The notes: a model not told the origin generated them from the letters alone. 44,411 bases of DNA from Lujinxingiaceae bacterium (GCA_013697635.1 JACCWM010000087.1:1-44411); one strand, 5' to 3'. Numbered from the stretch's first letter, positions 1,147 to 18,800 are shown. Translations and numbers: made by a program.

Positions 1147-2331
1147 ATGACCCAAAACGTGCAGATTCCACCCGCCGAGCTCATCCACCAGGACGAGCTG
1201 CGCTTTCTCCAGCACTTTGATTCGGGTCCGCGCCCGCCGGGCTGGCGGTTGACGCCGCGCGCGGTGGTGCAGTTCATCGTGGGCACGGGCGGCGAGAAGC
1301 TCAAGCTGGCTGCGGGAACCAAGGCCCCGGAGGGCGTGGCCCAGAGCCTGGCCATCTGCGAGAAGTTCGTCGGCCAGCGCGAGCTCGTCGAGCGCTGCGT
1401 GGTCACGCTTGCCAGCGAGCGCGGCCTGCTGCTCGTCGGCGAGCCTGGCACGGCCAAATCGATGCTCTCCGAGCTATTGGCCGCGGCCGTCTCGGGCACC
1501 AGCGCGCTGACCGTCCAAGGCACGGCCGGCACCACCGAGGACCAGATTCGCTACGGCTGGAACTACGCCCTGCTCATGGCCCGCGGGCCCCACCCCGAGG
1601 CTCTCGTGCCCTCGCCAGTGCTCACCGGCCTTCGCCGCGGCGCGATCGTGCGCATCGAGGAGGTCACGCGCTGTCTGCCCGAGGTGCAAGACGCGCTGAT
1701 CTCGCTGCTCTCGGACAGGCGCATGGCGATCCCCGAGCTCGACGAGGCCGTCGACGGCGAAGGCGGCACACGCATCGAGTTTGCCGCGCCGGGCTTCAAC
1801 GTCATCGCCACGGCCAACCTGCGCGACCGCGGCGTCTCGGAGATGTCGGCCGCGCTCAAGCGCCGCTTCAACTTCGAGGTGATCGCGCCGATCGCCGACA
1901 TCGAGCGCGAGAAGAACCTGGTGCGCTCACGCGCCTCGGCCTCGCTTGCCCGCGTCGACCAGAGCTTCCAGCTCGACGAGGCCGTGCTCGAGGCATTGGT
2001 CACGGCCTTTCGCGACCTGCGAAGCGGGCGCACCGTCGAGGGCTGGAGCGTCGAGAAACCCACGACCGTAATGAGCACCGCCGAGTGTGTCTCGGTGGCA
2101 AGCTCGATCGGCATCCAGGCCGCCTACTTTCCAAGCGAGCGCGACGTGGCATCGCTGATCCCAGGCTATCTGCTCGGCGTCGTTCTCAAGGATGACGCCC
2201 AAGATCGCGGACGGCTGTTGGCTTATTGGGACAGCGCCGTCACGCGACGCGCCGAGGGCGGCGGCCGGCTTTGGAAGCGCTTGTTGGAGCTTCGCTCGGT
2301 ACTCGAGGAGCACCATGGCCGCTCAACCTGA
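1147..2331 (+). CDS. MoxR-family AAA+ ATPase
   Basis: This 394-residue protein is a MoxR-type AAA+ ATPase, a class that acts as a chaperone-like motor with vWA-domain partners. Walker A is GEPGTAKS (residues 98-105). The Walker B region reads IVRIEE (167-172), with two glutamates where DE is usual. Sensor 1 is VIATAN (219-224) and the arginine-finger region is LKRRF (237-241). About 70 extra N-terminal residues (PPGWRLTPRAV...) precede the AAA core. The ATG at 1147 follows AGGAG by five bases. The stop overlaps the next start by 17 bases and that gene encodes a vWA domain, so the ATPase and its likely partner are translationally coupled. CbbQ/NorQ and magnesium chelatase subunits are related AAA+ groups, but no Rubisco, nitric oxide reductase or chelatase genes are nearby. 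Confidence 0.92.
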   Translation: MTQNVQIPPAELIHQDELRFLQHFDSGPRPPGWRLTPRAVVQFIVGTGGEKLKLAAGTKAPEGVAQSLAICEKFVGQRELVERCVVTLASERGLLLVGEPGTAKSMLSELLAAAVSGTSALTVQGTAGTTEDQIRYGWNYALLMARGPHPEALVPSPVLTGLRRGAIVRIEEVTRCLPEVQDALISLLSDRRMAIPELDEAVDGEGGTRIEFAAPGFNVIATANLRDRGVSEMSAALKRRFNFEVIAPIADIEREKNLVRSRASASLARVDQSFQLDEAVLEALVTAFRDLRSGRTVEGWSVEKPTTVMSTAECVSVASSIGIQAAYFPSERDVASLIPGYLLGVVLKDDAQDRGRLLAYWDSAVTRRAEGGGRLWKRLLELRSVLEEHHGRST

Positions 2332-5300
2332 GCACGATTTTGCAGCCGACAGCCGCGAGCTGACCGACGCGCTGGAGGCGCTGACCAGCTCGACCACGCC
2401 GCTGGTGATCGGCGTGCGCCACCACTCGCCGGCGCTCGCGGCGGTCATGGCTCGCCTGCTCGACGACTTTGCCCCCGACCGCGTGCTCATCGAGCTGCCC
2501 GTCGAGTTCGCGCACTGGCTCACGTGGCTGGGAGATCCCGGCTTGCGGGCGCCCGTTGCGCTGGCGGCCGCGCGCGCCGACGGCGCAGGCATGTCGTTCT
2601 ACCCTTTTGCCGACTTCTCGCCCGAGCTCGAGGCGGTGCGTTGGGCCGTGGCTCGCGGCGTGCCCGTCGAGCCCTTCGACCTGCCGGCCGGCACCCGACT
2701 CGAGGCCGCCTTCAAGACACGCACCGGCGCGCGCGATGACGCCCAGCCCGGGCTGACCGCCGCCTTGTACAAAATGGGTCGAACCGACGACTTCGAGTCA
2801 CTCTGGGATCGCGTCGTCGAGGTGCACGCCCCGGGCGCAAGCGCCGAGAGCTTGCGCCGCGCCGCGCTCTACGTGGGCTGGGCGCTTCGCCGCGACAGCG
2901 CCGAGGCCGAAGGCGTCTCAGACTACGACCAGCTGCGCGAGACCTTCATGCGCGAGCGCCTCAGGGCGCTTGGCGCCTTTGAGGGCAGCCAGAGAATCGC
3001 TGTGGTCGTCGGCGCATTTCACGGCCCGGCGCTGCTCAGCGAGCCTTCCTTCTATGCGCCGGTGACCCACGTGGCGGGGGTCGATGAGGTCGTCACCGCG
3101 CTTATCCCCTACGCCTTCGAGCTGCTCGATTCGCGCTCGGGCTATCCGGCGGGCATCCGCGATCCGATGTGGCAGCAGGCCATGTTTTGCGCACTGCGCG
3201 ACCAGGCCCCGCTCGACGAGGTGATCGCCGACACCCTGGTTCGCATCTGCCGCAGCATCCGCACCAGCGGCCATGTCGCCGGCATCCCCGACGCCGACGC
3301 CGCCATGCGCATGGCCATGAACCTGGCAAACCTTCGCGGCCTGCTCGCCCCGGGCCGCCAGGAGTTGCTCGAAGCCATCCAGACGGCCATGGGCCAGGGC
3401 GAGCAGCTTGGCCGCGCCCATGTGCTGGCGCGCGCACTCGAGCAGACACTGGTTGGACGTCGCCGCGGCCAGCTCGCCGGCGGCACACCGCGCTGTGGGC
3501 TCTACCCGCACGTCATCGAGCTCTTTGGCGCCCTCAAGCTGCCCGGCCCGGCCAGCACCAGCGCGGACGAGCAGATCATGCGCCTCGATCCGCTGCGCTC
3601 CGATCTCGACCGCCGCCGCCACGTCGCCCTGCAACGCCTGGAGGCCTGCGGCGTGCCCTACGCCGAGGAGCAGCAGCGCCAGGCAGTCGGCCTGGGCGAG
3701 ACTCTGACGCGGGCCTGGTCGGTAAACTGGCAGCCCTCGACCGAGGCCATGCTCGAGATGGCCGGCGTCTGGGGTGCAACCCTCGAGCAGGCCGCCACAG
3801 GCGCGCTCAAGATCCAGGAGAATCGCCTGCGCGCATCGGACGCCTGGACGGCCTCGGCCATGCTCGAGGCCGCGCGCCGCGCCGCCGAGTGCGCGCTCAT
3901 TGAGCTGACCCGCGAGCTGCTTCGTGAGCTCGAGGGCCCTTTTCTCGAGCAGGCCGATCTGGTGAGGATCCTCGATGCGCTGGTCTTCATCGAACAGCTC
4001 GAGCGTGGCCACATCCCCGGCCTCGACAGCCACGGCTTCGACGGCGAAAACGCCGCACGCCGCAGCGCATTTTTGGCCGCGGCCCTTCGCGCGCTCGAAG
4101 CCCTGACAGGTTCGGATCAACTCAACGATGCGCGCGCGCTGATCGCCCTCGTCTCGCTCTTCCAACACCAGGAGGCCCACGACGCGCTCGGCCACGGCAA
4201 GCTGGCCTGGCTCGTCGCATGCATGGCCGACGACGGCTCGCCGTTGATGCAAGGCGCCGGCTGCGCCGCACGCCACCTCATGGACGCTGAGGACATGGCG
4301 AGTTTCTCCCAGCGCCTGGGCTCCTGGCTCGACGCCGCCGTTGAGCCCGCCGCCATGGTGATCCTGTCCAAGCGGCTTCGCGGCGTGCTCGTCGCCGCAG
4401 GCCCGCTTCTGGAATCGAGCCCCGAGTGCCTCGAGGGCCTCGTTGGCCGCGTCGGCGCCCTGGCCGACGTCGACTTTCTTCGCCGCCTGCCCGCCCTTCG
4501 CGACGGCTTCGACGTGCTCTCCCCGGCCGCCAGAAGCCGCTTCCTCACCACCCTCGACGACGCCTTCCCCGCAAGCCTCGACCCACGCGGCCACACCCAC
4601 GCCTTCACCCTGGCCGACGCCCCCGAGTTGCTCGCCATGTGGGCATCGGCCAACTTGGCCGGCCAGCAAGCGCTCGCGCATCTGGGCACGATCGCGCTCG
4701 CTCAAACGGCCGCCTCCACGGCCCCGATCGGTGCGGCCCCGATCGGTGCCAGGCACCCGCACAAGTCCAATACCAGCAACGGAAATTCGCAATCACCTTT
4801 GCCGCCCGACCTCCCCCACGAGATCACGTCGCTGGAGCGCTGGCGCCTGATCCTCGGGCGCGAGCGCGAGAAGCTCAGCGGGCGCGCCGCCGGGGCTGCG
4901 CGGGCGCTCGACGAGCTCTACGGACAGGGCCAGGGCGAAGGCTCGCACGGCGGTCTGGGCGGAGATGGGGGTGGCCAGGAGCAAAGCTATCCGACCACGC
5001 GCGCGTGGGCCGACGATCTCGAAGAGCTCTTCGGCGCGCCGGTGCGAGACGAGGTGCTCGGAAAGGCCGTTGAGCTTGGACGAAGCGCCGCCGCGCTCGA
5101 GCTCGACGCCGAGAACGTCACCCCCTCGGTCGAGCTGCTCGAGCGCGTGCTCGCCCTCAAAGGAAGCCTCTCGGAAGGGCAGATGGCCAGGCTTCGAAAG
5201 CTGATCGACCGCATCGTGCGCGAGCTGGTCAAGGCCCTGGCAACGCGCGTCAAACCCGCGCTTACCGGCGTGCTCAGCCCGCGCACGACGCGGCGAAAGG

Positions 5301-5926
5301 GCGGCCCAGTCGATCTCAAGCGCACCATCGAGGCGAACCTCAAGACCACGCGGCCCAAAGAGGGCGGCGGATTTGAGATCGTGCCCGAAAAAGTCTACTT
5401 CAAGACGCGTAATCGGCCGGCCACCGACTGGCACATCGTCCTCGTCGTCGACGTCTCCGGCTCGATGGAAGCCTCGACGATCTATTGCGCCATGATGGCC
5501 GCGATCTTCTTTCATCTGCCGGCCGTCTCGGTGAGCTTTCTGGCGTTCAACACCGAGGTCATCGACTTGAGCGAGCGCGTCGACGACCCGCTCAGCCTGC
5601 TGCTCGAGGTGCAAGTCGGCGGCGGCACACACATCGCCCGCGGCCTGCGCTACGCACGTGAGATCACCAAGGTTCCTGCGCGCACGCTGGTCGTGCTCGT
5701 GAGCGATTTTGAGGAGGGCTACGAGGTCTCAGGGCTGATCCAGGAGGTGCGCACGCTGGTCGAATCCGGCGTCAAGGCGCTCGGCGTCGCCTCGCTCGAC
5801 GACGCCGGAAAACCACGCTTCAACCGCGCGATCGCCGAGATGGTCGCGGGCGCCGGCATGCCCGTCGCCGCCCTGACCCCGCTCGAACTAGCCCGCTGGG
5901 TAGGGGAGCAGATGCATGCCAGATAG
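2315..5926 (+). CDS. DUF5682-like protein fused to a C-terminal vWA (CoxE-like) domain
   Basis: The ATG at 2315 is preferred because GAGGAG lies four bases upstream; the longer frame from 2192 has no such site. The protein has 1203 residues. The N-terminal part (about 1-250) carries RHHSP (35-39), VLIELP with E60, and VVVGAFHG (230-237), the pattern I associate with DUF5682; it loosely resembles TraB/ChaN/EreA-type folds. A long helical middle follows. At about 805-890 there is a low-complexity and Gly-rich linker that contains an exact 15-bp tandem duplication (4720-4749). The C-terminal vWA domain has an intact metal-dependent adhesion site: DVSGS (D1046, S1048, S1050), T1105 and D1131. In other genomes I remember DUF5682 and vWA as separate neighbouring genes, so the fusion is notable. 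It likely works with the upstream MoxR ATPase. Its substrate is unknown. Confidence 0.88.
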   Translation: MAAQPEHDFAADSRELTDALEALTSSTTPLVIGVRHHSPALAAVMARLLDDFAPDRVLIELPVEFAHWLTWLGDPGLRAPVALAAARADGAGMSFYPFADFSPELEAVRWAVARGVPVEPFDLPAGTRLEAAFKTRTGARDDAQPGLTAALYKMGRTDDFESLWDRVVEVHAPGASAESLRRAALYVGWALRRDSAEAEGVSDYDQLRETFMRERLRALGAFEGSQRIAVVVGAFHGPALLSEPSFYAPVTHVAGVDEVVTALIPYAFELLDSRSGYPAGIRDPMWQQAMFCALRDQAPLDEVIADTLVRICRSIRTSGHVAGIPDADAAMRMAMNLANLRGLLAPGRQELLEAIQTAMGQGEQLGRAHVLARALEQTLVGRRRGQLAGGTPRCGLYPHVIELFGALKLPGPASTSADEQIMRLDPLRSDLDRRRHVALQRLEACGVPYAEEQQRQAVGLGETLTRAWSVNWQPSTEAMLEMAGVWGATLEQAATGALKIQENRLRASDAWTASAMLEAARRAAECALIELTRELLRELEGPFLEQADLVRILDALVFIEQLERGHIPGLDSHGFDGENAARRSAFLAAALRALEALTGSDQLNDARALIALVSLFQHQEAHDALGHGKLAWLVACMADDGSPLMQGAGCAARHLMDAEDMASFSQRLGSWLDAAVEPAAMVILSKRLRGVLVAAGPLLESSPECLEGLVGRVGALADVDFLRRLPALRDGFDVLSPAARSRFLTTLDDAFPASLDPRGHTHAFTLADAPELLAMWASANLAGQQALAHLGTIALAQTAASTAPIGAAPIGARHPHKSNTSNGNSQSPLPPDLPHEITSLERWRLILGREREKLSGRAAGAARALDELYGQGQGEGSHGGLGGDGGGQEQSYPTTRAWADDLEELFGAPVRDEVLGKAVELGRSAAALELDAENVTPSVELLERVLALKGSLSEGQMARLRKLIDRIVRELVKALATRVKPALTGVLSPRTTRRKGGPVDLKRTIEANLKTTRPKEGGGFEIVPEKVYFKTRNRPATDWHIVLVVDVSGSMEASTIYCAMMAAIFFHLPAVSVSFLAFNTEVIDLSERVDDPLSLLLEVQVGGGTHIARGLRYAREITKVPARTLVVLVSDFEEGYEVSGLIQEVRTLVESGVKALGVASLDDAGKPRFNRAIAEMVAGAGMPVAALTPLELARWVGEQMHAR

Positions 5927-7733
5927 TCGTCCCACAATTAGCCCGGCACTGATGGCCGCGCTCACCGAAGCCGCCCCCTCGCGCCTGGTGCGAAAGCTCG
6001 AGAGCGAGCCCACCCTGGGCGCGCCCTGGGCCTGGAGCACCACCGCAGATGGCCACACCATTCAGACCGACAAGGACGAAACGGTCACGCTTCGCCCCGT
6101 TGGCGGCGTGCTGCGCGACGGCGAGCACATCGCCTGCTCGTGTCTGCTCACGCCGCGCTGCTTGCACGTTTTGGCCGTCGCTCACCTGCTCGATCTCGAC
6201 GACGGCAGCAGCGCTCAGCCCGACGCACCAGGCGATGATGTCGACGACATCTTTGTGCCCGCCCCGATCGACGACACCGCCCTCAGCCCGGCCCAAAAGG
6301 CCGCCGCCTTGGCCCTGTGGGAGGCCGGCAGCGCCCTGCTTGACCACGGCGCCGCCAATGCCCGCATGACCATCGTCGCCGAGCTGCTTCGCGCCGTACA
6401 CACCTGTCGCATCGCCGGCCTGCACCGCGGCGCCGCCGCTGGCCTGCGCACCGCCCAGTGGATTCGCCAGCTCCAGAGCGCCAGCAGCGGCTTTCAACTC
6501 GAAGGCCTCTCGGCCGATTTGCACGACCTGCTCCTGACAAGTTGGATGCTGGCCCACGCCGACGTTGCCCCCACGCCCTCGCTTCACGCCTGGGTCGGCA
6601 CCGCCCGGCGCACCTACGCGCTCGCTGGCGGCTTGCGCCTCTTTGGTTTGTTCTGCGAGCCGGTCATCGCCCAATCGGGCTACGGCGGGGTCGCCGTCAC
6701 CCTGGCCGAGCGCTCCGGGCGCATGTGGACCCTCTCGGATGTCTATCCAGCCGGCGCCAACCGCGTCATCGGCGCCTACCTGGGCGGCATCTCGATCGGC
6801 GACACCAGCCTGGCACCGACCGACCTTTGCCGCGCCGGCCTCATGCTTCAACACGCCGCAGGCTCGCCCGATGGCCGCCTCAGCATGGGTAAGAATGTGC
6901 GCGCCGTCACCTCCGACGCCGGCGACTGGAACTCCGAGACCCTTCGCCCCCTCTGGGAGCACCCCCTGGCCGCCCAGCTCGACCGTGCCTGGCAAGCCCT
7001 CGCGCTCCCGATCCCCGAGCGCCCGGCCGGCAGCGACCTGATCTTCTTGGACGGCCACGTCGTCGGCGCCCACGACGACGCCCTGATTATCGAAGCCCAC
7101 ACCGGCGGCGACGAAAAAGTCCTCATTCGCTGCGTCGCCTCCGTGCTCAACGAGGCCCTGGCCTACCGCGACAACCTGCGTCTGCTGGCCCGCGCGCCCG
7201 GCCTAAATCTTCGCTTCATCGGCCGCCTCGACTTCGACCAACCCCATCAGATAGCCCTACTCGCCATCGCCAACGCCCCCCAAGACGACGCCATTGCCAC
7301 CTCCGCCCCCTCCCTCGCCCTACCCGACACCTGGCGCGCACGCGTCAACCTCGGCCTCGATCGCCTCCAGACCGGCTTCATCACCCACACCGAAGCTCGC
7401 CCAACCAAAGCCAATCTCATCGAAACCGATCAGATGCCCACACCCCTTGAGATCCTGCGCCGACGCCTCCAACGCCTCGTCTACGGCGGCCGCATGACCC
7501 TTCGCGCCGAGATCACCCCCGCACTTGAGCGCGAGGCCCTCCAACTCGACCACCGCCTGCTCTCCCAGGGCGCGACTTTACTGCGCGCCCTTGCCATCAG
7601 TGGCCTTCCCCGCGGCCGCACCTGGACCGGCGAACACGAGGTCACCGACCCCCAGGCCCTCGCCCGCTGCTGGCTCGCCGCCACCGTCTACGACGAAGCC
7701 GCCACCCGCGCGATCATGCGCAGCCGCTGGTAG
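5916..7733 (+). CDS. SWIM zinc-finger protein
   Basis: This 605-residue protein starts at an ATG seven bases after GGGGAG and overlaps the end of the DUF5682-vWA gene by 11 bases, so it is the third coupled gene of the module. A SWIM-type zinc ligand set is visible at C74-x-C76-x5-C82-x-H84 (CSCLLTPRCLH). The five-residue spacing is at the short edge of the family pattern CxCxnCxH. SWIM domains bind zinc and are often used for DNA or protein binding. The remaining ~500 residues are a mixture of helices and beta segments that I cannot assign. No signal peptide or membrane helix is apparent, so it is probably cytoplasmic. SWIM proteins are recurrent neighbours of MoxR/DUF5682/vWA genes in actinobacteria (from memory), which supports membership in the same system rather than a chance neighbour. 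Confidence 0.85.
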   Translation: MPDSRPTISPALMAALTEAAPSRLVRKLESEPTLGAPWAWSTTADGHTIQTDKDETVTLRPVGGVLRDGEHIACSCLLTPRCLHVLAVAHLLDLDDGSSAQPDAPGDDVDDIFVPAPIDDTALSPAQKAAALALWEAGSALLDHGAANARMTIVAELLRAVHTCRIAGLHRGAAAGLRTAQWIRQLQSASSGFQLEGLSADLHDLLLTSWMLAHADVAPTPSLHAWVGTARRTYALAGGLRLFGLFCEPVIAQSGYGGVAVTLAERSGRMWTLSDVYPAGANRVIGAYLGGISIGDTSLAPTDLCRAGLMLQHAAGSPDGRLSMGKNVRAVTSDAGDWNSETLRPLWEHPLAAQLDRAWQALALPIPERPAGSDLIFLDGHVVGAHDDALIIEAHTGGDEKVLIRCVASVLNEALAYRDNLRLLARAPGLNLRFIGRLDFDQPHQIALLAIANAPQDDAIATSAPSLALPDTWRARVNLGLDRLQTGFITHTEARPTKANLIETDQMPTPLEILRRRLQRLVYGGRMTLRAEITPALEREALQLDHRLLSQGATLLRALAISGLPRGRTWTGEHEVTDPQALARCWLAATVYDEAATRAIMRSRW

Positions 7734-7753
7734 CCCGCCAAATTTTTCGACGT

Positions 7754-8374
7754 TTAGCACTTGGCCAGATAGCAGCTCTTGCGGGTTGCCTCGGAGAGCG
7801 ATTCGACGATGCTCTCGGTCAAAGGCGTCACGGAGCTGATCAGATCGTCGCCTTCGGCTTTGGGTGGCATGACCACCTCTTTCCAGGCGAACTGATGCTC
7901 TTCGTTGCAGCCTGACCAGAGCGAATAACCCCAGCGGTCGGGGGCAAAGCCTCGCCAGACTGCCACGTAGAGGTGGTGCTCCTCGCAGAAGAGGTGGTTT
8001 TGGGGATCGACTAAGGCGGGGTCGTAGTGGACCTGGGGGGTGAAGTGCAGCTGCTCGCTCGCGGCGAGGTGTTTGGCGAGCGACTCGGCGATCGTCTCGA
8101 GCAGGGTGGTGTCGACCGGGCCAGGCATGGGCTGGCTGATCCCGACGTCGGTGAACGAGATCGTCTTGAAAACCGTGTCGCTGTCGCTGGTGATGAGAAA
8201 CGGCGAGTAGTAGTGCTCGCGCTCGACGCTGACGACCGAGGCGATCGACTCCACGGCGGCCGGGCTCATGGCCAGCTCGCCGCGTGTGGCCGGTGCCGGT
8301 ATGCTTGTTCGAGCGAGCACGACGCTGCCCAAGAGCAAAACCGCGATCGTTATGGGCAAACCAACTCGACGCAT
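7754..8374 (-). CDS. Small exported protein of unknown function
   Basis: I chose the ATG at 8374 because GAGG lies five bases upstream and the protein then begins with a clean signal peptide (MRR followed by a hydrophobic run to about residue 21). A start 24 bases further upstream lacks a ribosome binding site. The 206-residue product has four cysteines in the mature part (CEEHH, SGCNEEH and a C-terminal SCYLAKC) that could form two disulfides, and it is otherwise mixed alpha/beta. I do not recognise a family. It is convergent with the SWIM gene, ending 20 bases from it, and a candidate promoter lies just upstream, so it is probably monocistronic. Confidence 0.7.
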   Translation of the reverse strand: MRRVGLPITIAVLLLGSVVLARTSIPAPATRGELAMSPAAVESIASVVSVEREHYYSPFLITSDSDTVFKTISFTDVGISQPMPGPVDTTLLETIAESLAKHLAASEQLHFTPQVHYDPALVDPQNHLFCEEHHLYVAVWRGFAPDRWGYSLWSGCNEEHQFAWKEVVMPPKAEGDDLISSVTPLTESIVESLSEATRKSCYLAKC

Positions 8375-8411
8375 TCCAACCTCAATCACCATGGCCAAAG
8401 ACTACGATCCA

Positions 8412-8439
8412 AATATACGCATTGTCGATCGCTTTTAAA
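8412..8439 (-). promoter_or_regulatory. Candidate sigma-70-type promoter for the gene at 8374
   Basis: Read on the minus strand, TTTAAA (8439-8434) is followed after 16 bases by TATATT (8417-8412). The -10 hexamer matches consensus at five of six positions and the -35 at four of six. Transcription would begin near 8405, about 30 bases before the start codon. This is pattern recognition only, in a locally AT-rich patch. Confidence 0.4.
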
Positions 8440-8573
8440 GCCTCTTCTCTGATCGTGGCACGAAAGCAGGCGCCAACATTGATTTGCTCTTGCGAGCTAC
8501 GAAGCCTGAGGCTACTTGTTAGAGTCAGTCATTCAAACGCATGCCGCATTACGATGATGGCCGAGGTCAAAAG

Positions 8574-8819
8574 ATGCAACAATTTCCCACGATCGCCGTG
8601 TTTGTGTTGATCGCAAACGTCGGCCTCTGCGGGACGACGCCCAAGAGCGCCGTGCCCGAGGACGCCGCGGCGGTGCCGGCCGCAGAGCGTTTGCAAGGCG
8701 GGCGCAACGTTTACCAGGGCAACGTCAACCACAACCTCGGTGCCCTGCGCGACGATCTCGACGAGACGGTCAAGGAGCGCTTCGATGAACAAAGTAAGAC
8801 CGTCGAGGCGACCAAATAA
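8574..8819 (+). CDS. Small exported or lipoprotein-like protein, 81 residues
   Basis: The ATG at 8574 follows GAGGT by six bases; an upstream ATG at 8541 has no ribosome binding site. The N-terminus is hydrophobic (residues 5-18) and ends in VGLC, so C19 might be a lipid attachment site, although leucine at -1 is unusual for a lipobox. The mature part is short and charged (about 60 residues) and has a predicted helix near the end (DDLDETVKERFDEQSK). No family is recognised. It could be a small periplasmic or inner-face lipoprotein. Expression from its own promoter is likely, because the upstream neighbour is divergent. Confidence 0.6.
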   Translation: MQQFPTIAVFVLIANVGLCGTTPKSAVPEDAAAVPAAERLQGGRNVYQGNVNHNLGALRDDLDETVKERFDEQSKTVEATK

Positions 8820-8918: not shown

Positions 8919-8960
8919 TGGCACCTTAAGCCTGCATGTCGACGAAACAAAAGATTGTCC

Positions 8961-9626
8961 ATGAGCGATATACATGTTTCCTATCAGTGGCTTCAGCGAG
9001 GCCGAGGAACGAGCGAGTTGGTACGCCGCGAGGCGGTAGCAACGGGCGCCGATGGGTCACCGGTTGCCGCCGATGATATTTTCGCCCAGATCGCCAATCT
9101 CAAGGGCATGCCTCACTTTGCCGATGTACGCGAGCTACGCCTCGAGGAAAACGGCCTGGCCGATCTGACACCGCTGACCAGCCTCAACGACATCGAAGTA
9201 CTCCATCTGGCGGGCAATGACATCGTCGAGTTGTCACCGCTCTCCTCGCTGGTCAAGCTGCGCATCTTGGATTTGAGTCGCAACCCCAATCTCGAGAGCT
9301 TGAATCACCTCAGCAGGCTCACGGCTCTGGAGAATCTGAGCATCTATCAGACCCAGGTCGACGATCTCGAACCAATCGCGCACCTGTCCAAGCTCAAGGT
9401 CCTCAACTTCTCCAACACCCGCGTCACCGATCTGGCGCCGTTGTTGCAGATGGCCTCGCTTTGCGAGGTGCAGCTCTTCGAATTCGGCGAGATCGAGCGC
9501 GGCACCGATGATTGGAACATCATCGTTGAGCTGCTCTCGCGCCAGATTCGCGTCGACTGCCACGGCGTCGGCCGCATGGTCAGCGCCGCCACAGAATTGC
9601 GCCGCCGGCGCCGACAAGACCGTTAA
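8961..9626 (+). CDS. Leucine-rich-repeat protein
   Basis: This 221-residue protein has about five 22-residue leucine-rich repeats of the SDS22/internalin type between residues 45 and 165 (for example VRELRLEENGLADLTPL, IEVLHLAGNDIVELSPL, LRILDLSRNPNLESL). The C-terminus is very basic (RRRRRQDR). LRR arrays form curved protein-binding surfaces; no enzymatic domain is attached. No signal peptide is apparent, so it is likely cytoplasmic. The ATG at 8961 is preferred over a TTG six bases earlier, although neither has a strong ribosome binding site. The gene ends only three bases from the end of the convergent 1675-residue gene. Confidence 0.8.
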   Translation: MSDIHVSYQWLQRGRGTSELVRREAVATGADGSPVAADDIFAQIANLKGMPHFADVRELRLEENGLADLTPLTSLNDIEVLHLAGNDIVELSPLSSLVKLRILDLSRNPNLESLNHLSRLTALENLSIYQTQVDDLEPIAHLSKLKVLNFSNTRVTDLAPLLQMASLCEVQLFEFGEIERGTDDWNIIVELLSRQIRVDCHGVGRMVSAATELRRRRRQDR

Positions 9627-9629
9627 TTC

Positions 9630-12600
9630 CTAAAACGATGGCACGTCGCCGTCCTCAAAGCGCTTCCAGGCCCGCTCAAAGAGCGTGTGGACGGGCTCGA
9701 GAACCACGATGTTACCCAGCGGCGAATGGGCATCGGCCGTGGTTCGATAGATCTGGAGCTTCCAGGTCTCGATCGGCAGATGCGGCGTCTTGAAAGCTTC
9801 CCAGCCGCCGTCGATGAAATAGCTGCGCCCGGCGCGCGCGCGCTTGGCCTCGACCAGGATCTTCTTGACGACGAGCTCCTTGCCCGCCTTGGTGTAACGC
9901 GCAGCCGTCCAGCCGTTCCAGATGCGCACGTTGGCTGTCGTCGGGTTGTACAGGGTCAGCGTCTGTAAGAAGAGCACAGCGGCGTCCTCGCTGACGCCAA
10001 AGCGCTCGCGCACCTGGGCGACAAGTTCGGGCACCGAGTGCAGCGCGTTGGCCTCGTACTCACCCTCAGCTACGGGCGAGGTGCAGGCGCGCTCGCACAG
10101 CGCTCGAAAGCCCTCGGAGACCAATATTTCAATGCGCGTCAAAGCGGCGTCGATCTGTGGATAGCTGGCTCGAAGCGCGCGTTGCTCGACGGGCAACGCG
10201 CCGCCACCAAGCAAAAAGTGCGTCCGGTAATACTGCGAACAGCTATACATGCCGCCAAGGGCCACCATACTCTCGGTCTCGACCAGATCGATGCCCAGGC
10301 CTTCGCGGCGCGCGCCACCGAGCGAATCGAGCCACTGGTTCTTGCGCAGCGCATTCTTCGCCGCGTCCTCGCCGTAGAAATACTCGGTGTGCAAGAATGC
10401 GAGCAACTTGGGACTGGCGAGCTGATCGTAGACGGCCTTGTAGAGCGCCTGAGCGTTGGCGCGAAGCGCGTCACCGACGGGGTACATCAAATACATGTAA
10501 GCGATAAGCGACATCGCGTCGGCGAAGGGGCCGTCGCCAAACAATGGCTCGGTCACGGCTGGATCGTCCTCGACGGCGACCGTGTAAACGCTGGGATAAT
10601 TGCGGTTCTCGATGTTGAATCGGCTTTGCACCGCCCGGCTGTAAGTCTGGGAGCTGCTCGGGTCGACGAGCGCAGTGAGCAACGCCCTCGAATTCAGGGT
10701 CAGCCGCAGGTTCTTGTCGACCTCGATGATCAACGCATCGGGAAGCGCCGTTTTTTTACCAAAGACCTCGTTCCAGGCCTTGGCCATGGTGGCCACAACG
10801 CCGAAAGAATCCTCGCCATTGGCACCGATCGACCAGAGCTCCTCGGGGTTGGCCGGAAACGAGCGCTCATAGAACTCAAATAACTTCTCGACGTTGAGGC
10901 CTCGAAGCGTCGAGCGCGCCGCATCGGCCTCGGTCACCTTGAGGCCCATCTCGGTGCGCAGCTCCTTGCTAAGAAAGTTCTTCTCCCAACTGCTGATGTT
11001 CGGCATACCGACCCAAATCAGCGCCGCCTCGGCAAAGCTCAGACCGGTGAGTTCGGCCAGCTTCGTGGCCGCCTCGGCACTCCAGGGCACCTGGCCCTTC
11101 TCGGACATGGCGAGCACAAAGCGCGCAATATTCGCGCTGGTGAACGAAGAGCGGCTGAGCACGCGCTCGCTGGTCATGTTGGCGCCCGCCAGCACCTTGA
11201 ATTTGCCGTCGGGGGCATACTCGAGCACATTGGATTGATTGGTCGCATAGCTGCTTTGAAGCACGCCGGTGTAGCGGTTGCCCTCGTAGACCGTCGCCCA
11301 AACCCCGCTCTCCTGGTTCTTGGGCAAGTAGGAGGCCGCATTGGTATCCAAAATGCTGTAATTGACCAGGCGCAGTTGACCCTCGTATTCAAGAAAGCCA
11401 AGCTCTGCCCAGGTCGTAAGCAGCGCGGTGATCCGTCGACTGCTGTTTGGATCGCGCCCATGGCGCGAGGCGATGAAGGCCAACGCCCCTTCCCTGCCAA
11501 ACAACTGTTGCCAGGGCGTCTTGAGAAAGACATGCGCTGCGCCGTCGTCACCTTCGAACAGGAAGCGCCGCTCGGAGCGCAGCGCATCGATCAGCGAAAC
11601 AGCGCCGTTGTTCCACCAATAGCCGAACTGATGTAGACCCACGGAATTGAGCGCCTGGCTGATGTCACCATCCTCGATGGCATCGCCAATAGGGTTGTTT
11701 ACCAGGTTTTGAGGTGAAGCAGACTCGAACAACTTGATATACGATTGGGCCGCCTGCGCGGCTTCTTGGACCACACTCGCCACCGCCTCGATGAACCCTT
11801 TATCGCTTGCATTGGCCACAATGCTGGCGACGAGCGCTTCGAGTTCGACAGCCTTGGGCGCTTTGCCAGCCTCCCGCTCACCGCGCAGCACACCGGCCCA
11901 ATGTTCACCGCAGGCATAGAGCGTGGCCTCGCTCTTAAGTGCGAGCCCGCTCGAGACGATGCGCACGCACAGCTCATCGATCCAGGCGGCCAGTCGCTCG
12001 GATTTGGCTACGGTCGTCGTGGATGCAGCGAGATCACCGAGCACCGCGGCCAGCACGAGCGTTGCGACGGCGTCCGCGCTCAAATTGCGCAGGCTCGTCG
12101 AGCCGTCACCGTCGCGGGCCGTGCAAAGGTGCATGAATCGAAAGTTCAAATAACCCAGCGCCGAGGCGGTGTGGCTTGCCGTCGAGGCGACATAACCGCC
12201 GTCGTGCGCGCAGATCGACAAATCTGCGGTGATCGGGCGCAAGAGCTCGTCACCGGGAAACTTCGCAAGCGCGACCGGACCGCTAAAGCCTGGTGTCGAC
12301 AAGGCGAAGCGCCGCCCGTCGATACTCTCCCATTCGGTGAGATACGGCGCCAAAAGCGGCGTTCGCACGCGCCAGCCGTAGAGCCCATCCTTGCCACCAA
12401 GTGGTGAATCTTGCATCTCCTCGCTCAGCGGATACAGCTCGAACCTCGAGATATTGAGCTGCTTGCCCTCGGCAACAAAGTCCTCAAAAAAGCGCGGCAT
12501 CGAGCGCCGGCCGACCGTGCCCGTGCGCGGATCGAACTCGGCCAGACTCTGGTCGTTCCAATCGCCGCGCAGCGTCCAGTAATTCTCTTTGTCGCTGAGC

Positions 12601-14657
12601 ACCAGACCGCTGGCCAAGCCATCTTTGTCACCGGGATACAGCGCCCGCCCGCCGTAGCTGATGCCTCCATCGGCAAGCTCAATGGCCACACCGGGCTGGC
12701 CCAGATGGCTCGTAAAGTCGAATATCTCCGACGGATTACCGCTCCAGTACGCGCTACCTCGCCAGTGACTGTCGTAGAAGCCGACGAGCAATTGCCCGCC
12801 GGCGTAGCGTACCCAGTTGAGCCGGCTGCCTGCGGGTAGCTGCAAGTCGTGCTCGAGAACACGCCCTTTGGGGCCGACGACGATCGCGCGCAGTGCGTTA
12901 TAGAGCATGGCAAAGGGAAAGATCGCGACGAGCGTGGGCGAGGAGGCATTCTTGCCTTTGGTGCTCAACTCTTCGAAGGCCTCCTCATAGGCTGGCCAGC
13001 AGAACTCGTCGAGCAGACCGGTTTGAAGCGTGCGCCAGAGCGGCGAGACCAGATCGACCTGACAGCCAAGCTCGTAGGCATCTGGAAACTCGGCAAAAGT
13101 CGCGGCGCTGACGTTTGCGCTGAGCGTGCTCTCGGTGGCGACGAACGCCGGCAGCGCGCCGCGACTGAGCTCGCTGATGCGCTCGGTCAACCAGGCACGC
13201 CGGGCGCGCTCGAGCCCGGAGCGGCCTTTTGCGACACGCTGAAACTCCGCGTTTCCAAAGGCCTCGCCAACGGCGCTGTCCAGCGAGAGCGCAAAGCGCG
13301 CGTCGTTGCCGACAAAGACCAGGTCGCGCAGATGCTCGCTCGACTCGGCGTCGGCACCGGCCCAGCCCGCCAGATCGAAGTTTGCCTGGCTGACAACCGG
13401 GATCTCCAGCTCAATGGCGAGGTCGACCAGATCGATGTCCGCCTTGGAGTAATAGCCGCCGTCGCCGAAGCTGAGCTCGACGCCGTCATTCTTGAGGCGG
13501 GCGGCCATGCGCCGCATGATTCCAAAAACGACGTCGGGCTGATTCGAGGAGCTGCGCCAGGAGTAGCGCTCCATGCTGTGGCTGAGCGTGCGCGACAACC
13601 AGGCCGCGGCGCTGTCCTCCGGAGCGGCGGCAACAGCCATCTGACCGGCCGGCTCATAGAGCGCGTCGAGCGCGCCGCACTCCTCGAGAAACTCCAGCCA
13701 CTCGATCTTGTAGGCGGCTTCGGCGCCTTGTGGCGTCGGAAAAAGGTTGAGCAGGCGACCGCGCATCGCGGCGTCCTTGACGGCGAGCTTGGCGAACGGC
13801 TTGCGGTAGGTCTTCCAAAACTTCACTGCTGCGCGCGAGAGCGAGGGCGCCTGCCAGACCTCACGGATAAAGCGCGCGTCCTCGTCGGCCTGCTTGAGAC
13901 CGGCGATGCGCACGAGCTTTCGAAGCTGATCGACCAGCGCGGCATGCGGCGGCGTGCCCCCCAGCGTGCGGCGAACGCACAGATCGAAGAAGATCTCGTA
14001 GGCCTGCCCGTCACCGTAGCGCTTGATCAGATCCGTGGCGTAGTCGGTCATCGCCTTGTTGGTCAGCGCACCGGCCAGCGCAAACTCGATGAAGGCCTCG
14101 CGGCGCTGATTCTCGTCGACCTCGAGCGCGTAGATCTGCTCGGCGTCGCGCGCCTTGCCAAAGGCGCTCGCGGCATATGCTGTATTTCCTGCCTCGAGAA
14201 AGGCGCGTCCGACCTGCTCGTAATAGGAGGGCAAGAAATGCGGTAGCGTGCGCGCGAGGTCCTCGGCGATCACGTCGAAGGCCTCCTTGGCGTGGCCGGG
14301 CTTGGACTTGGCCGCGCGCGCCTGGCGGTTAAGCGCCTTGGAGACCTCAAGGGCGCGCACGCCGTTGGCCGGATCGTGCACAAGCACCCACTGCGGAAAA
14401 CCCAACAACTGGCGCTGGCGGCGCGCGACCTGCTCGACAACGCGCCCCGCCGTAAAGCCGAAGTACTCCATGCTGCTGTCCTCGCCGGGCGCGAGGCTCG
14501 TCGAGGTCAGGCGCACGACCGGGCGATCTCCCAGCGCCGGGTGCACGTAGAAGCGCGCATCGATCTGATCGACGACGGCGTCGTTGGGAAGGCTTGTGGT
14601 TGCGGGCAGATAGGCCCCCGCTTTGAGAAGCTGATGTGGTTCAATGCTCACAACCAT
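9630..14657 (-). CDS. Giant conserved protein of unknown function, MoxR-system-associated type
   Basis: The ATG at 14657 is chosen because AGGAG lies five bases upstream; an in-frame extension to 14750 would run into the preceding gene. The product has 1675 residues with no signal peptide or membrane segment. Residues 39-50 read HPALGDRPVVRL. A TPR-like helical stretch follows at about 140-300. A beta-rich middle (roughly 570-860, with repeated YW, FDF and GG turns) could be propeller-like, and the rest is helical. Near the C-terminus are RARAGRSYFIDGGW and PHLPIETWK, which I remember from very large actinobacterial proteins encoded beside MoxR genes and usually named only hypothetical or DNA-binding protein. 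The gene follows the DUF4132-like gene by 55 bases, so the two form an operon. The function is unknown; a scaffold for the MoxR/vWA module is an inference. Confidence 0.75.
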   Translation of the reverse strand: MVVSIEPHQLLKAGAYLPATTSLPNDAVVDQIDARFYVHPALGDRPVVRLTSTSLAPGEDSSMEYFGFTAGRVVEQVARRQRQLLGFPQWVLVHDPANGVRALEVSKALNRQARAAKSKPGHAKEAFDVIAEDLARTLPHFLPSYYEQVGRAFLEAGNTAYAASAFGKARDAEQIYALEVDENQRREAFIEFALAGALTNKAMTDYATDLIKRYGDGQAYEIFFDLCVRRTLGGTPPHAALVDQLRKLVRIAGLKQADEDARFIREVWQAPSLSRAAVKFWKTYRKPFAKLAVKDAAMRGRLLNLFPTPQGAEAAYKIEWLEFLEECGALDALYEPAGQMAVAAAPEDSAAAWLSRTLSHSMERYSWRSSSNQPDVVFGIMRRMAARLKNDGVELSFGDGGYYSKADIDLVDLAIELEIPVVSQANFDLAGWAGADAESSEHLRDLVFVGNDARFALSLDSAVGEAFGNAEFQRVAKGRSGLERARRAWLTERISELSRGALPAFVATESTLSANVSAATFAEFPDAYELGCQVDLVSPLWRTLQTGLLDEFCWPAYEEAFEELSTKGKNASSPTLVAIFPFAMLYNALRAIVVGPKGRVLEHDLQLPAGSRLNWVRYAGGQLLVGFYDSHWRGSAYWSGNPSEIFDFTSHLGQPGVAIELADGGISYGGRALYPGDKDGLASGLVLSDKENYWTLRGDWNDQSLAEFDPRTGTVGRRSMPRFFEDFVAEGKQLNISRFELYPLSEEMQDSPLGGKDGLYGWRVRTPLLAPYLTEWESIDGRRFALSTPGFSGPVALAKFPGDELLRPITADLSICAHDGGYVASTASHTASALGYLNFRFMHLCTARDGDGSTSLRNLSADAVATLVLAAVLGDLAASTTTVAKSERLAAWIDELCVRIVSSGLALKSEATLYACGEHWAGVLRGEREAGKAPKAVELEALVASIVANASDKGFIEAVASVVQEAAQAAQSYIKLFESASPQNLVNNPIGDAIEDGDISQALNSVGLHQFGYWWNNGAVSLIDALRSERRFLFEGDDGAAHVFLKTPWQQLFGREGALAFIASRHGRDPNSSRRITALLTTWAELGFLEYEGQLRLVNYSILDTNAASYLPKNQESGVWATVYEGNRYTGVLQSSYATNQSNVLEYAPDGKFKVLAGANMTSERVLSRSSFTSANIARFVLAMSEKGQVPWSAEAATKLAELTGLSFAEAALIWVGMPNISSWEKNFLSKELRTEMGLKVTEADAARSTLRGLNVEKLFEFYERSFPANPEELWSIGANGEDSFGVVATMAKAWNEVFGKKTALPDALIIEVDKNLRLTLNSRALLTALVDPSSSQTYSRAVQSRFNIENRNYPSVYTVAVEDDPAVTEPLFGDGPFADAMSLIAYMYLMYPVGDALRANAQALYKAVYDQLASPKLLAFLHTEYFYGEDAAKNALRKNQWLDSLGGARREGLGIDLVETESMVALGGMYSCSQYYRTHFLLGGGALPVEQRALRASYPQIDAALTRIEILVSEGFRALCERACTSPVAEGEYEANALHSVPELVAQVRERFGVSEDAAVLFLQTLTLYNPTTANVRIWNGWTAARYTKAGKELVVKKILVEAKRARAGRSYFIDGGWEAFKTPHLPIETWKLQIYRTTADAHSPLGNIVVLEPVHTLFERAWKRFEDGDVPSF

Positions 14658-14712
14658 GGACGCTCCTGGAGTGCTTTGCAGTGATCGTGTCGCATTCAAG
14701 GCCGCCCGGGAA

Positions 14713-15600
14713 TTACTCCTCGGTCTTCTCTTCCTTGGCGCGCCCGGCATAGACGGCGGCGGCCATACGCATGCCCTCGGAGAAGGCCACCGGCCCGACG
14801 CTTCCCAGCGCGAGCGGGCGCTCCTTGTCGTCCACCCAGATCAGCTCGCCGGTAAAGGTCTCGTACTCGGGGTAGTCGCAGCCAATCCAATAGCGTGCTT
14901 CGACGTGCACTCCAGCCTCCCAGACCGGGCAGCAAGCGAAGCCGCCGCGCACCCGATAGCCCAGGCTGCGACAGCGCCCATTGGCAAAGTTGAGCTGGTC
15001 GAACTTGCCGTTGGCGAAGCTTTGGATCGAGCGCTGATCGTCTTTGTGCTCGGCGCCGCGCGGATAGATCTCACGAAAGAGCTGCGAGAGGCCCTGCTCC
15101 ATGGCAAGCTCGACGGCGATCTCACGCAGGTCGGCGATCTCGGCCAAAAGCACGGGATGGGGAATGACCACCGTCTCGACGTTGAGCCAGATCGTCTCGC
15201 CATCGAGATTGACCAGCCCGACACCACGCTGGGCATCGGCGCCTCGCAAAAAGCCCACGTGCTCCTCGTCACCTGCTGCGAAGCCTTGAGGCGCGACGAC
15301 GGCGTTCTCCAGAGGCTTTCGCCACGCCGGATCGTCCCACACAGCGAGGATGACCTGAACCGGCACAGGCAGCGAGCGCAGCATCCAACCATCGACCGTC
15401 TCGATGCAGGTGCGCTCGTGCTCGACGAGAAGATCGAGCACCTGGCGAAGCTGCTGAACGGCATCGCTGCTGCGCACCTTGGGCGGCAAAGTGGCGAGCA
15501 GCTTACCCTTGGCATTGCGACAGACAATCTTGCCCTCGTCGATCGTGACCGCGTAGCCGCCGTCGGCGTCGACCCATGGTTGTATCGCTTCAACAGCCAT
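14713..15600 (-). CDS. DUF4132-like protein
   Basis: This 295-residue protein begins at an ATG preceded by GAGGATAGGA. Its central part (about 90-215) resembles the DUF4132 domain: WDDPAWRKPLENAVVAPQG, then GFLRGADAQRGVGLVNLDGE, IPHPVLL, and MEQGLSQLFREIYPRG. The C-terminal part contains a GYRVRGGFA strand and GPVAFSEGMRMAAAVYAG. DUF4132 proteins are uncharacterised; many are fused to or encoded near WGR/MolR-type proteins, and stand-alone versions occur beside giant MoxR-associated proteins (from memory, not checked). It is the first gene of a two-gene operon with the 1675-residue protein downstream. It starts about 140 bases beyond the terminator of the upstream lipoprotein gene, so it must have its own promoter, which I could not place with confidence. 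Confidence 0.7.
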   Translation of the reverse strand: MAVEAIQPWVDADGGYAVTIDEGKIVCRNAKGKLLATLPPKVRSSDAVQQLRQVLDLLVEHERTCIETVDGWMLRSLPVPVQVILAVWDDPAWRKPLENAVVAPQGFAAGDEEHVGFLRGADAQRGVGLVNLDGETIWLNVETVVIPHPVLLAEIADLREIAVELAMEQGLSQLFREIYPRGAEHKDDQRSIQSFANGKFDQLNFANGRCRSLGYRVRGGFACCPVWEAGVHVEARYWIGCDYPEYETFTGELIWVDDKERPLALGSVGPVAFSEGMRMAAAVYAGRAKEEKTEE

Positions 15601-15801: not shown

Positions 15802-18800
15802 TCACTGCCACCACAGCCTCGGCGGTCCGCCAAAGGGCATCACCCAGATGTGGTTGGCCGCCGGCGCGAAGATCCAGCTCGCGTTGAAGCTCGACGTCTC
15901 GCCCATCTGTGCCGTGGTCAAGGGCGTGCCGCCGGAGCTGGTCGCGCTTCCCGTCGTCACATTCCAATAGGAGTCCGTGACCGTGGCGGAGTTCGCGCCA
16001 ACGAGGCCGCCGACGTTACCGTTTCCAAGCACGACGTTGGTCGCGTACGAATTGGTGATCGAGCCGGCCACGTTTCGCCCGACCAGGCCACCGACCGCTC
16101 CGTTGCCGCTGTTGCTGGCCGTACCGGAGCTGAAGCAGTTACGGATCGTACCCTCGTTGCGCCCGACCAGGCCACCGCCGGTGCCATTGCTGGAGAACGA
16201 ACCGGTCACGAAGCTGTTCTCGATCAGGCCCTTGTTGAGGCCGACCAGCCCGGCGGTGCGTCCACCGCCGCCGGCGATGTAGTTGAGCAGGCCGATCTGG
16301 CGGATCGTGCCGGTGGAATCGGTGAACATCGCCGAATTCTCCGCGCCGCCCGGGATCGACAGGTTGCTGATGCGCCGGAAATTGCCGTCGAAGACGCCGC
16401 TAAACGGTGTCGTGCCCGTGCCAATGCGATTGTAGGTGACGTTGTTCATATTGATGTCGGCCAGCAACTTGAAGTGGCTATTCCAATACTGAGCATTGCC
16501 GGCAAGGCCGATGCGGTTGAGTTGCGCAGCCGTGCAGATCGTAAACGGGTCGTAGATCGTGCCGGCGCCGCCACCAAACAGAGTTCCGGCTGGATCACAG
16601 ACCGAGTCGGCAAAGAAGCTGATCGTCGCACCGAGCTTGACCAGCGGGGTCGCAATCGAGAGCGCCTTGGGACCGGCCTGCGTCGAGGTCATCTCGCAGG
16701 TCGCCACGCCCAGAGCGTTGGTGGCGCTACAGCTGCCATAGGCGTTACCGCCACCCGTCGCGCTGAAGGTCGGCACGACGCCAGCGACAGGATTTCCGTA
16801 CGTGTCCACCAGCGTGATCGTGATCGAAGCAGCCGTGACACCGTCGGCCAGCCCATTGGTGCCCGTGATGTTCGAATTGGCCGCAACCGGCGCCGCTGCG
16901 CTGATGTCGAAGCTGTTGCTCGTCGCGGTTGCCAGAGCGCCGCTCGCTGCGCCCAGGCGATAGCCCACAGCGGCACGGTTGATCGACAAACCGGGAAAGC
17001 TCGCCAGACCGGCATTGGCCTGGCGCGTCAGCGTACCGCTGAGTACACCGTCGCCAGCCGGGTTGGTCGTGATCGACAAGGTGATCGATGCCGCCGAATC
17101 GCTCACACGGTCGCCGTCGGCATCAATGACCTCCACACCGACGCCGCCCAGGCTTGCGCCGGCCGCGGCCGAAGCGGGATGCGTCACGAAGCGAAGGCCC
17201 GTGGGCACGGCCGACAAGGTCGTGAAGCTGATGTTCTCACCGTATGACGTGCCGGCTGCCGTCGTGGCAAATGCCCGAACGTAGTAAGTGGTCGCCGCAT
17301 CGAGATCGGAGACCAGAGCGCTGAATTCATCGGTGCTCGAGCTTGCCCCTAAAGACTCACAATCGGCCGTGTTGGGCACGGCCACCGTCGACCAGCAAAA
17401 GCCGTGAGCGGTCGGGTTGGGAGCACCGAGCACGGTGATCGTACCAAAGGCACGTGCGCTCTTGGCCTGAACGCTGTCCACCGAATTGGTGGTCACCGTC
17501 GGCAGCGCCGCACGAAAGCCGCGATCCGAGCCCGAACTCTGAGACAGGGCACCTGCAGCGCTGACCGTCACGCGGTAGTAGCGCCCTGCGCCCGTTGCCG
17601 GGGCCGTTGCATCGTTGTATGTCGGCACGGCCGTATCGACGAGCCTCACGAAGCCACTTGGTGCATCGGTCGACGAGCGATCCCAACTAAAGGCGCGCGT
17701 GCCAACTCCGCGGTGACCCATAGCGGCCGACGATGCCGTGCTCAATCCGGCGTCATTGACGGAGACCACACGGTAGCTAACGCTCGAGCCAGCCGAAGCC
17801 TCGCCACCGGTTGCCGAGAGCACGACATGGAGCGCTGAAGTTCCCTTGCTTGCACCAAGGGTCACGGCCGAGAGCGTGGCCGCCGGCGCAGCGGTGTCGG
17901 TGTAGCTGAGGGCGTTGCCCAAAGCAATCCAGCTGCCATTGCCATTGATCTCGATCTGGTAGCCGTCAACACCGTAGCCGGCGAGAAAACCGCTATCCGA
18001 GCCGGACGCCGCGCCCGAACCGGCGTCGTTGAACGCGCGCACGGTGTAGGTGTGGCTTGTGCCAGCATCGGCCGTCGAAGCGCTCCAGGAAACCGTGACA
18101 TGTGCGGTGCTCGTGCCCTGGGTCGCCGTGACATTGCCTGGCGTCGAAGGTACGCCGGCTCGGGAGGCGGTCGTGTCGGTGTGGCTCGTGACCAGCACCG
18201 ACTCGAGCAGTGCTCCGTCGCGGTAGACGTCGTAGCCGCCCACCGCAAGTGCTTCGCGGTAGCCTGTCGCCGCATCAGAGGGTTCGCTGGAGAGGGCCGG
18301 ATAGGTGGCCACGACGGTGTACTCATAGCTCTGTCCGTTTTGCACGGAAGACGCGCTCCAGCTCAGCTCGACGACTTCACTCGACACACCTTTGGTCGCG
18401 CTCAACGCCGTAGGCGCCGACGGCACGCCAGGAGCGCCGGCAGCATCGTCTTCGAGGCTGTCCGCCTCATCGCCGAGCTGGCCGATCGCGACGCCGTCAC
18501 GATAGACGATGTACCCCGTCGCGCCATCGATGCCCGTCCAGGTGATCCAGACGCTCGCGCTGCTGTCGCGGGTTGCATCGACATCGGTCGGAGCCGGAGC
18601 CGCCGTCACGAAGGCAATCTCGTTGCCATAGTAGTAGGCATCGGCATCGGCCAGGAATGCGCGCACGTAGTAGGTGCGGCCTGGGAGCAGGGTCTCGACG
18701 AAGAGATCGAAAGCTGTAGCCTGGTCGAGCTCACCCAACTGCTGACAGTCGGCGTCGTCGAGCGAAGGTTCCTCCTCGGTCGACCAGCAAAAACCGTGAT

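What the first reader, a model, noticed from the sequence alone, without database searches (positions are those of the whole stretch)
1147..7733. Coupled MoxR ATPase / DUF5682-vWA fusion / SWIM zinc-finger operon
Three genes overlap by 17 and 11 bases: a MoxR AAA+ motor, a 1203-residue protein joining a DUF5682-like N-terminus to a vWA domain with intact MIDAS (D1046-x-S-x-S, T1105, D1131), and a SWIM protein. MoxR-vWA modules with extra partners have been proposed from comparative genomics as NTP-dependent conflict or quality-control systems, but no member of this exact type has, to my knowledge, a demonstrated function. The fusion ties the unknown domain directly to the vWA domain and so to the motor.
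Basis: partly seen in the sequence, partly recalled or inferred. Interest (0 to 1): 0.75.

Follow-up and report, generated by a model that had tools for sequence, protein, structure and literature searches.

The report
AAA motor with hidden TIKI-like hydrolase
The three genes are one half of a widespread five-gene bacterial machine, related to the uncharacterised yehI-yehLMPQ genes of E. coli, in which a ring-shaped motor is coupled through its adaptor to a domain that looks like an unrecognised member of the TIKI/TraB hydrolase superfamily; nobody has yet shown what it does.

Summary
The set is not an orphan. It is homologous to E. coli K-12 yehL-yehM-yehP-yehQ; YehL is a published MoxR subfamily, and yehM is in 97% of E. 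coli genomes. Three things go beyond the finding. (1) The N-terminus of DUF5682 is a TIKI/TraB-type hydrolase-fold domain: profile-profile E=6e-10 against TraB/PrgY (controls 0.066 or worse), invariant active-site-type His and Glu, and a structure model whose best matches include ChaN, HopBA1, EreC, RRSP and BcR135. (2) The machine has five genes: DUF4132, a ~1650-residue protein without any Pfam family, MoxR, DUF5682-vWA, SWIM. In relatives 68 of 68 and 74 of 75 testable loci keep the first two directly upstream. (3) The fusion probably arose twice, and three clades differ in accessory protein (giant, YehI-type DUF4132, DUF5691). Best mechanism: the MoxR ring pulls on the vWA and so remodels or gates the attached TIKI domain. 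Catalysis, substrate and biological role are not shown. New variant of a known kind.

The parts
1147..2331 (+). MoxR AAA+ ATPase of the YehL subfamily, 394 aa; Walker A GEPGTAKS (residues 98-105), Walker B IVRIEE (167-172), sensor-1 region ATAN (221-224)
   Evidence: AAA_5 E=8e-38; 45% identity to E. coli YehL over 385 columns, E=7e-103; motifs
2315..5926 (+). DUF5682-vWA fusion, 1203 aa (homologous to E. coli YehM joined to YehP)
   Evidence: Pfam; blastp to YehM E=2e-23 and YehP E=1e-65
2399..3124 (+). TIKI/TraB-type hydrolase-fold domain of the fusion (residues about 29-270); putative site H36 (GVRH), E60 (LIELP), D122, R208/E209/M212, H236 (GAFH)
   Evidence: hhalign to TraB/PrgY 96.6%, E=6e-10, controls; AF2 pLDDT 90.4; structural matches ChaN, HopBA1, EreC, RRSP, BcR135; residues invariant
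3152..4690 (+). all-helical middle region of DUF5682 (residues about 280-792), fold not assigned
   Evidence: AF2 model of the fusion, mostly pLDDT 70-95
4694..4993 (+). low-confidence linker between the DUF5682 part and the vWA part (residues about 794-893)
   Evidence: segments 766-806 and 842-863 of the model under pLDDT 50
5237..5902 (+). CoxE/NorD-type vWA domain with complete MIDAS (D1046, S1048, S1050, T1105, D1131)
   Evidence: VWA_CoxE E=6e-57; best Foldseek hit is the NorQD complex; vWA folds Z up to 19; invariance
5916..7733 (+). SWIM zinc-finger protein, 605 aa (YehQ-like); CSCLLTPRCLH at residues 74-84
   Evidence: (YehQ profile E=1.5e-17)
9630..14750 (-). 1706-aa protein without Pfam family ('giant'), conserved partner, here inverted and downstream
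   Evidence: directly upstream of MoxR and codirectional in 74 of 75 testable loci; no Pfam hit
14713..15600 (-). DUF4132 protein, 295 aa, overlaps the start of the giant gene; same domain as the C-terminus of E. coli YehI
   Evidence: PF13569 E=1e-20; directly upstream of the giant gene in 68 of 68 testable loci

Best explanation
A chaperone-like AAA+ remodelling machine. The MoxR protein forms a hexameric ring (inferred from NorQ and RavA). The CoxE/NorD-type vWA part of the fusion docks on the ring, probably through a finger in the pore as in NorQD (inferred), and ATP hydrolysis twists or stretches the rest of the chain. Because the vWA is covalently joined to the DUF5682 part, the force acts on a TIKI/TraB-type hydrolase-fold domain (fold and motifs shown; catalysis inferred) and opens, activates or feeds it. 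The SWIM zinc finger, the DUF4132 protein and the giant protein are taken to recognise or hold the substrate (inferred from operon conservation only). The outcome would be ATP-gated cleavage or remodelling of a dedicated protein target in stress or quality control. The target is unknown.
For: TIKI assignment by several routes. Profile-profile: E=6e-10, 220 columns, both GxxH motifs and the Glu in register; the unfused subset alone E=1e-9; eight unrelated or GumN profiles and 30 column shuffles gave nothing better than 0.066. Family model: the DUF5682 HMM finds TraB proteins of relatives at E=2e-5 to 1e-3, and 4 of 21 members weakly hit Pfam's ChaN/Tiki model, best E=0.044. Structure: model pLDDT 90.4; ChaN Z 8.4, HopBA1 7.7, EreC 6.7, RRSP 6.5 and BcR135 6.2 stand above the unrelated rows, families listed as TIKI structures in PMC6254334. 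H36, E60, D122, R208, E209, H236 are invariant from E. coli to Myxococcota. Motor and adaptor: YehL-type MoxR; intact MIDAS; the vWA matches the NorQD complex, where MoxR pulls on the vWA protein's linker (PMC13036017). DUF5682-vWA fusions fall into two separate clades, which supports physical coupling.
Against: No activity, complex or phenotype is known. TIKI folds can be inactive (PMT lacks the 2His/2Glu set, PMC6254334) or bind haem (ChaN), so the domain may only bind. The extra Glu two residues before the first His of RRSP is absent here, as it is in TraB. In E. coli and other clades DUF5682 and vWA are separate proteins, so covalent coupling is not essential. The fold matches are moderate (Foldseek alone had none at E below 0.001). 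Ring formation and docking were not modelled.
Confidence: 0.5

Rival explanations
1. Cofactor- or metal-insertion chaperone like NorQD, CoxD or CbbQ: the TIKI domain is a binding module (as ChaN binds haem), and the machine opens a client for metal or haem insertion.
For: The well-characterised MoxR-vWA pairs act on client assembly or metal insertion (PMC9976466, PMC13036017); VWA_CoxE family; ChaN is among the best folds.
Against: No metalloenzyme gene was seen to recur beside the operon; the conserved neighbours are DUF4132, giant, YehI or DUF5691 proteins. By sequence, TraB gave the clear match.
Confidence: 0.22
2. Conflict (anti-phage or anti-plasmid) system analogous to the MoxR-vWA ternary systems, the TIKI domain being the effector.
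For: Variable accessory components on a constant core (three clades); patchy in Myxococcota (22 of 112 genomes over the cut-off); some plasmid copies lie next to toxin-antitoxin or restriction genes, recombinases and insertion sequences.
Against: yehM is in 5284 of 5426 E. coli genomes, nearly always chromosomal and single-copy; no PADLOC match; one unannotated hit in 50,697 phage records; no C-terminal effector on the vWA; the window neighbourhood is not a defence island.
Confidence: 0.15
3. DNA-damage or stress-response machine acting on DNA-bound complexes, with SWIM and DUF4132/giant as nucleic-acid-associated parts.
For: A DUF4132 protein of D. radiodurans (DRA0166) and a WGR/MolR-like protein (DR2173) are induced by mitomycin through DdrO/IrrE (PMC8533742); a Streptomyces giant protein is annotated as DNA-binding protein.
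Against: No LexA-type boxes upstream in 71 loci or the window; DRA0165-0166 has not been linked here to a MoxR/DUF5682 operon; SWIM motifs can also bind proteins (own knowledge).
Confidence: 0.13

Closest known systems
E. coli K-12 yehI-yehL-yehM-yehP-yehQ (YehL subfamily of MoxR ATPases)
   Same: Same core families in the same order: MoxR, DUF5682, vWA, SWIM, with a DUF4132 protein upstream
   Different: In E. coli DUF5682 and vWA are separate genes, DUF4132 is the C-terminus of the 1210-aa YehI, and there is no giant protein; function of both unknown
TIKI/TraB/PrgY superfamily (TraB, ChaN, Ere esterases, RRSP, HopBA1)
   Same: Fold, two GxxH motifs, glutamate, R-x3-M motif
   Different: Arg in the first motif (GVRH, not GTAH), a long helical C-terminal region, and attachment to a vWA and a AAA+ motor
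NorQ-NorD and RavA-ViaA
   Same: MoxR motor plus vWA adaptor with MIDAS; NorQD is the best Foldseek match of the fusion
   Different: The adaptor carries a TIKI hydrolase-fold domain; SWIM, DUF4132 and giant partners; client unknown
MoxR-vWA ternary conflict systems (Kaur et al. 2020, PMC7159879)
   Same: MoxR plus vWA plus conserved further components in one operon
   Different: None of the named third components found (VMAP, iSTAND, FtsH, propeller); no effector fused to the vWA C-terminus; core in E. coli

Membership tests
YehL-subfamily MoxR operon (yehLMPQ type) | MoxR ATPase homologous to YehL over its length | tested here: met
   45% identity, 385 columns, E=7e-103
YehL-subfamily MoxR operon (yehLMPQ type) | linked DUF5682, CoxE-type vWA and SWIM genes in the same order | tested here: met
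   SWIM to YehQ by profile only (1.5e-17)
TIKI/TraB superfamily | significant profile similarity to a recognised member | tested here: met
   TraB/PrgY E=6e-10, controls 0.066 or worse; no match to GumN-type members
TIKI/TraB superfamily | two His and Glu of the active site (GxxH ... E ... GxxH) | tested here: met
   H36, E60, H236 invariant in 21 diverse members and in 32 close ones; the Gly of the first motif is not strict in distant members (PVRH)
TIKI/TraB superfamily | TIKI alpha/beta fold | tested here: met
   model pLDDT 90.4; ChaN Z 8.4, rmsd 4.6 over 147; other solved TIKI families named in PMC6254334 rank directly below
TIKI/TraB superfamily | hydrolytic activity | not testable with these tools
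   needs an assay
MoxR-vWA ternary conflict systems (Kaur et al.) | one of the named third components (VMAP, iSTAND, FtsH, beta-propeller) | tested here: inconclusive
   no such Pfam domain in the five proteins; only a partial bpMoxR match, 49 of 205 positions; VMAP and iSTAND models were not searched by themselves
MoxR-vWA ternary conflict systems (Kaur et al.) | variable effector domain C-terminal to the vWA | tested here: not met
   vWA ends at residue 1196 of 1203
NorQD-type MoxR-vWA chaperone | intact MIDAS on a vWA partner encoded beside the MoxR gene | tested here: met
NorQD-type MoxR-vWA chaperone | vWA finger inserted in the MoxR pore | not testable with these tools
   no complex modelling; parts of the region before the vWA core are of low confidence
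Known anti-phage defence systems | match to PADLOC-DB models | tested here: not met
   no hit at 0.01 for MoxR, fusion, SWIM, giant or LRR protein

The most novel reading that the evidence does not exclude
A new class of ATP-driven hydrolase machine: a MoxR ring that, through a covalently attached vWA adaptor, powers or gates a TIKI/TraB-type protease or esterase, with SWIM, DUF4132 and giant proteins as substrate-selection parts; widespread from E. coli to Streptomyces and Myxococcota.
Probability: 0.35. Interest if true: 0.85.

Novelty: new variant of a known kind. Interest (0 to 1): 0.62.

Why it matters
YehL is one of only two MoxR ATPases of E. coli K-12 (PMC3893208), and its partners are uncharacterised. 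Giving DUF5682 a fold and a candidate active site turns an anonymous operon, found in 97% of E. coli genomes, into a testable enzyme hypothesis with three residues to mutate. If the domain is active, MoxR-vWA motors would gain a hydrolase output besides assembly and metal insertion.

Tried and rejected
Sequence search of solved structures with the N-terminal profile, SWIM and giant proteins gave nothing credible. Foldseek alone gave no match at E below 0.001 for the N-terminal domain; the VIA-align second look was needed. Giant protein against YehI-type and DUF5691 profiles: no similarity. GumN-type TraB members: no similarity to DUF5682. LexA-type boxes upstream of the operon: none. Promoter and terminator scan: no more than chance. 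The idea that the fusion is unique to this genome was rejected: fused forms are the rule in this clade. No VMAP, iSTAND or other named ternary partner appeared in the Pfam scans.

Full report
Observation. Pfam gives AAA_5 on the first, DUF5682 (PF18934, 8.6e-165) plus VWA_CoxE (6e-57) on the second, and a sub-threshold SWIM on the third. The SWIM protein carries CSCLLTPRCLH, and 86 of 92 family members have such a motif.

What the operon is. E. coli K-12 has the same families in the same order: yehL (MoxR), yehM (DUF5682), yehP (vWA), yehQ (SWIM). Window MoxR is 45% identical to YehL over its length (E=7e-103); the fusion matches YehM (2e-23) and YehP (1e-65), and the SWIM protein matches the YehQ profile (1.5e-17). 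YehL names one of the published MoxR subfamilies (PMC3893208). So the system is known as genes, but not in function: no paper in the library contains DUF5682, and the yeh genes appear only in deletion or genome lists.

Fused and unfused forms. A tree of DUF5682 domains puts fused proteins in two separate clades, one around the window and one around L045-L050, with unfused relatives between them, E. coli included. This fits two fusions (or one fusion and later splitting), and recurrent fusion is good evidence that the two parts work together.

The operon is longer than three genes. In 74 of 75 loci with room, a gene for a protein of about 1650 residues without any Pfam family lies directly upstream of MoxR on the same strand; in 68 of 68 with room, a DUF4132 gene lies directly upstream of that. 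In the window both genes exist but are inverted downstream: the giant protein at 9630-14750 and DUF4132 at 14713-15600, minus strand (PF13569 1e-20). In a close relative (G004; L038 and L154) they follow the SWIM gene on the same strand. In a relative with a single-contig genome (G005) they lie about 4 Mb away but are kept. All 10 of 58 relatives with the giant protein also have a DUF5682 match, against 24 of 58 overall over the cut-off. E. coli YehI carries DUF4132 at its C-terminus. A third clade (Deinococcus, Methylosinus and Hymenobacter plasmids; Myxococcota L035-L037) has DUF5691 in this place, with SWIM in front in two of the plasmids (44). The picture is a constant core of MoxR, DUF5682 and vWA, mostly with SWIM, and three alternative accessory sets.

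The N-terminus of DUF5682 is a TIKI/TraB-type domain. The lead was the motif pair GVRHHSP...LIELP and REx2M...VVGAFH, which recalls TraB/PrgY. Tests: (a) profile-profile alignment with TraB/PrgY proteins of related genomes: 96.6%, E=6e-10, 220 columns, motifs in register. (b) Controls: eight unrelated or GumN profiles and 30 column-shuffled TraB alignments gave nothing better than 0.066; the unfused members alone still gave 1.2e-9. (c) The DUF5682 Pfam model picks up TraB proteins in relatives at 2e-5 to 1e-3 (one of these ORFs is scored as TraB, and two others read as TraB), and 4 of 21 DUF5682 members weakly hit Pfam's ChaN/Tiki model, best E=0.044. (d) The AlphaFold2 model of the domain (pLDDT 90.4) has ChaN (Z 8.4), HopBA1 (7.7), EreC (6.7), RRSP (6.5) and BcR135 (6.2) at the head of its structural matches, behind a Tetrahymena complex IV subunit (10.3) that I did not identify. 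PMC6254334 lists ChaN, HopBA1, BcR135 and RRSP as TIKI structures. Each line is moderate; together I take the fold assignment as about 95% sure. H36, E60, D122, R208, E209 and H236 are invariant from E. coli to Myxococcota, which favours a working active site but does not prove it.

Mechanism. In NorQD the MoxR ring grips a finger of the vWA domain in its pore and twists the linker to the rest of the adaptor (PMC13036017, PMC9976466). The vWA of the fusion has the NorQD complex as its best Foldseek match and a low-confidence, probably flexible segment between DUF5682 and vWA. By analogy, MoxR would pull on the vWA and so move the DUF5682 part, which begins with a hydrolase fold. Shown: gene set, order, fusion, motifs, predicted folds. 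Inferred: ring, docking, force on the TIKI domain, catalysis, substrate recognition by SWIM, DUF4132 and giant proteins.

Biological role. For a house-keeping or stress role: yehM is present in 5284 of 5426 E. coli genomes, single-copy and nearly always chromosomal; no PADLOC match; one unannotated hit in the phage records. For a conflict role: patchiness in Myxococcota, alternative accessory proteins, and plasmid copies beside toxin-antitoxin or restriction genes. A DNA-damage link is suggested only by DUF4132 and WGR proteins of D. radiodurans, and no LexA-type boxes were found.

Organism. A relative in the same class (G032) has a contig that matches CAINDO010000133.1, an uncultured Myxococcales bacterium, in length and in the stretches compared, so the window is most likely from Myxococcota.

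Noticed in passing
G000:C11:52000-57622 (L034), with DUF4132 at C11:49791-50249: The same genome holds a second system of this kind: MoxR plus DUF5682, cut by the contig end, with a 969-residue DUF4132 frame a few kilobases upstream.
   Followed up: partly
G000:C125:41614-46479 (L160:3534-8483): A paralogue of the giant protein stands without MoxR, DUF5682 or SWIM beside it, so the giant family also has a life outside the operon.
   Followed up: partly
window 8955-9626: Small leucine-rich-repeat protein between the two halves of the split operon; no partner role tested.
   Followed up: no
window 20415-24014 (-) and 30671-35011 (+): Two large protein kinase-AAA_16-TPR proteins, 24% identical over about 1200 residues.
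   Followed up: no
window 15802-20208 (-): 1468-residue probable lipoprotein with Big_1, GLUG and weak fn3 matches.
   Followed up: no
L164:5738-10657 (Streptomyces sp. NBC_00984 plasmid): The giant protein is annotated as 'DNA-binding protein' there; I found no domain to support it.
   Followed up: no
model m05a6218ff5a6 (window 2399-3253) against 7w5z_E / 8bqs_DQ: The best structural match of the TIKI domain is a subunit of Tetrahymena mitochondrial complex IV (Z 10.3); its family was not identified here.
   Followed up: no
L087:18-3654 and 3634-8581: A Planctomycetaceae locus has two giant genes in tandem upstream of MoxR.
   Followed up: no
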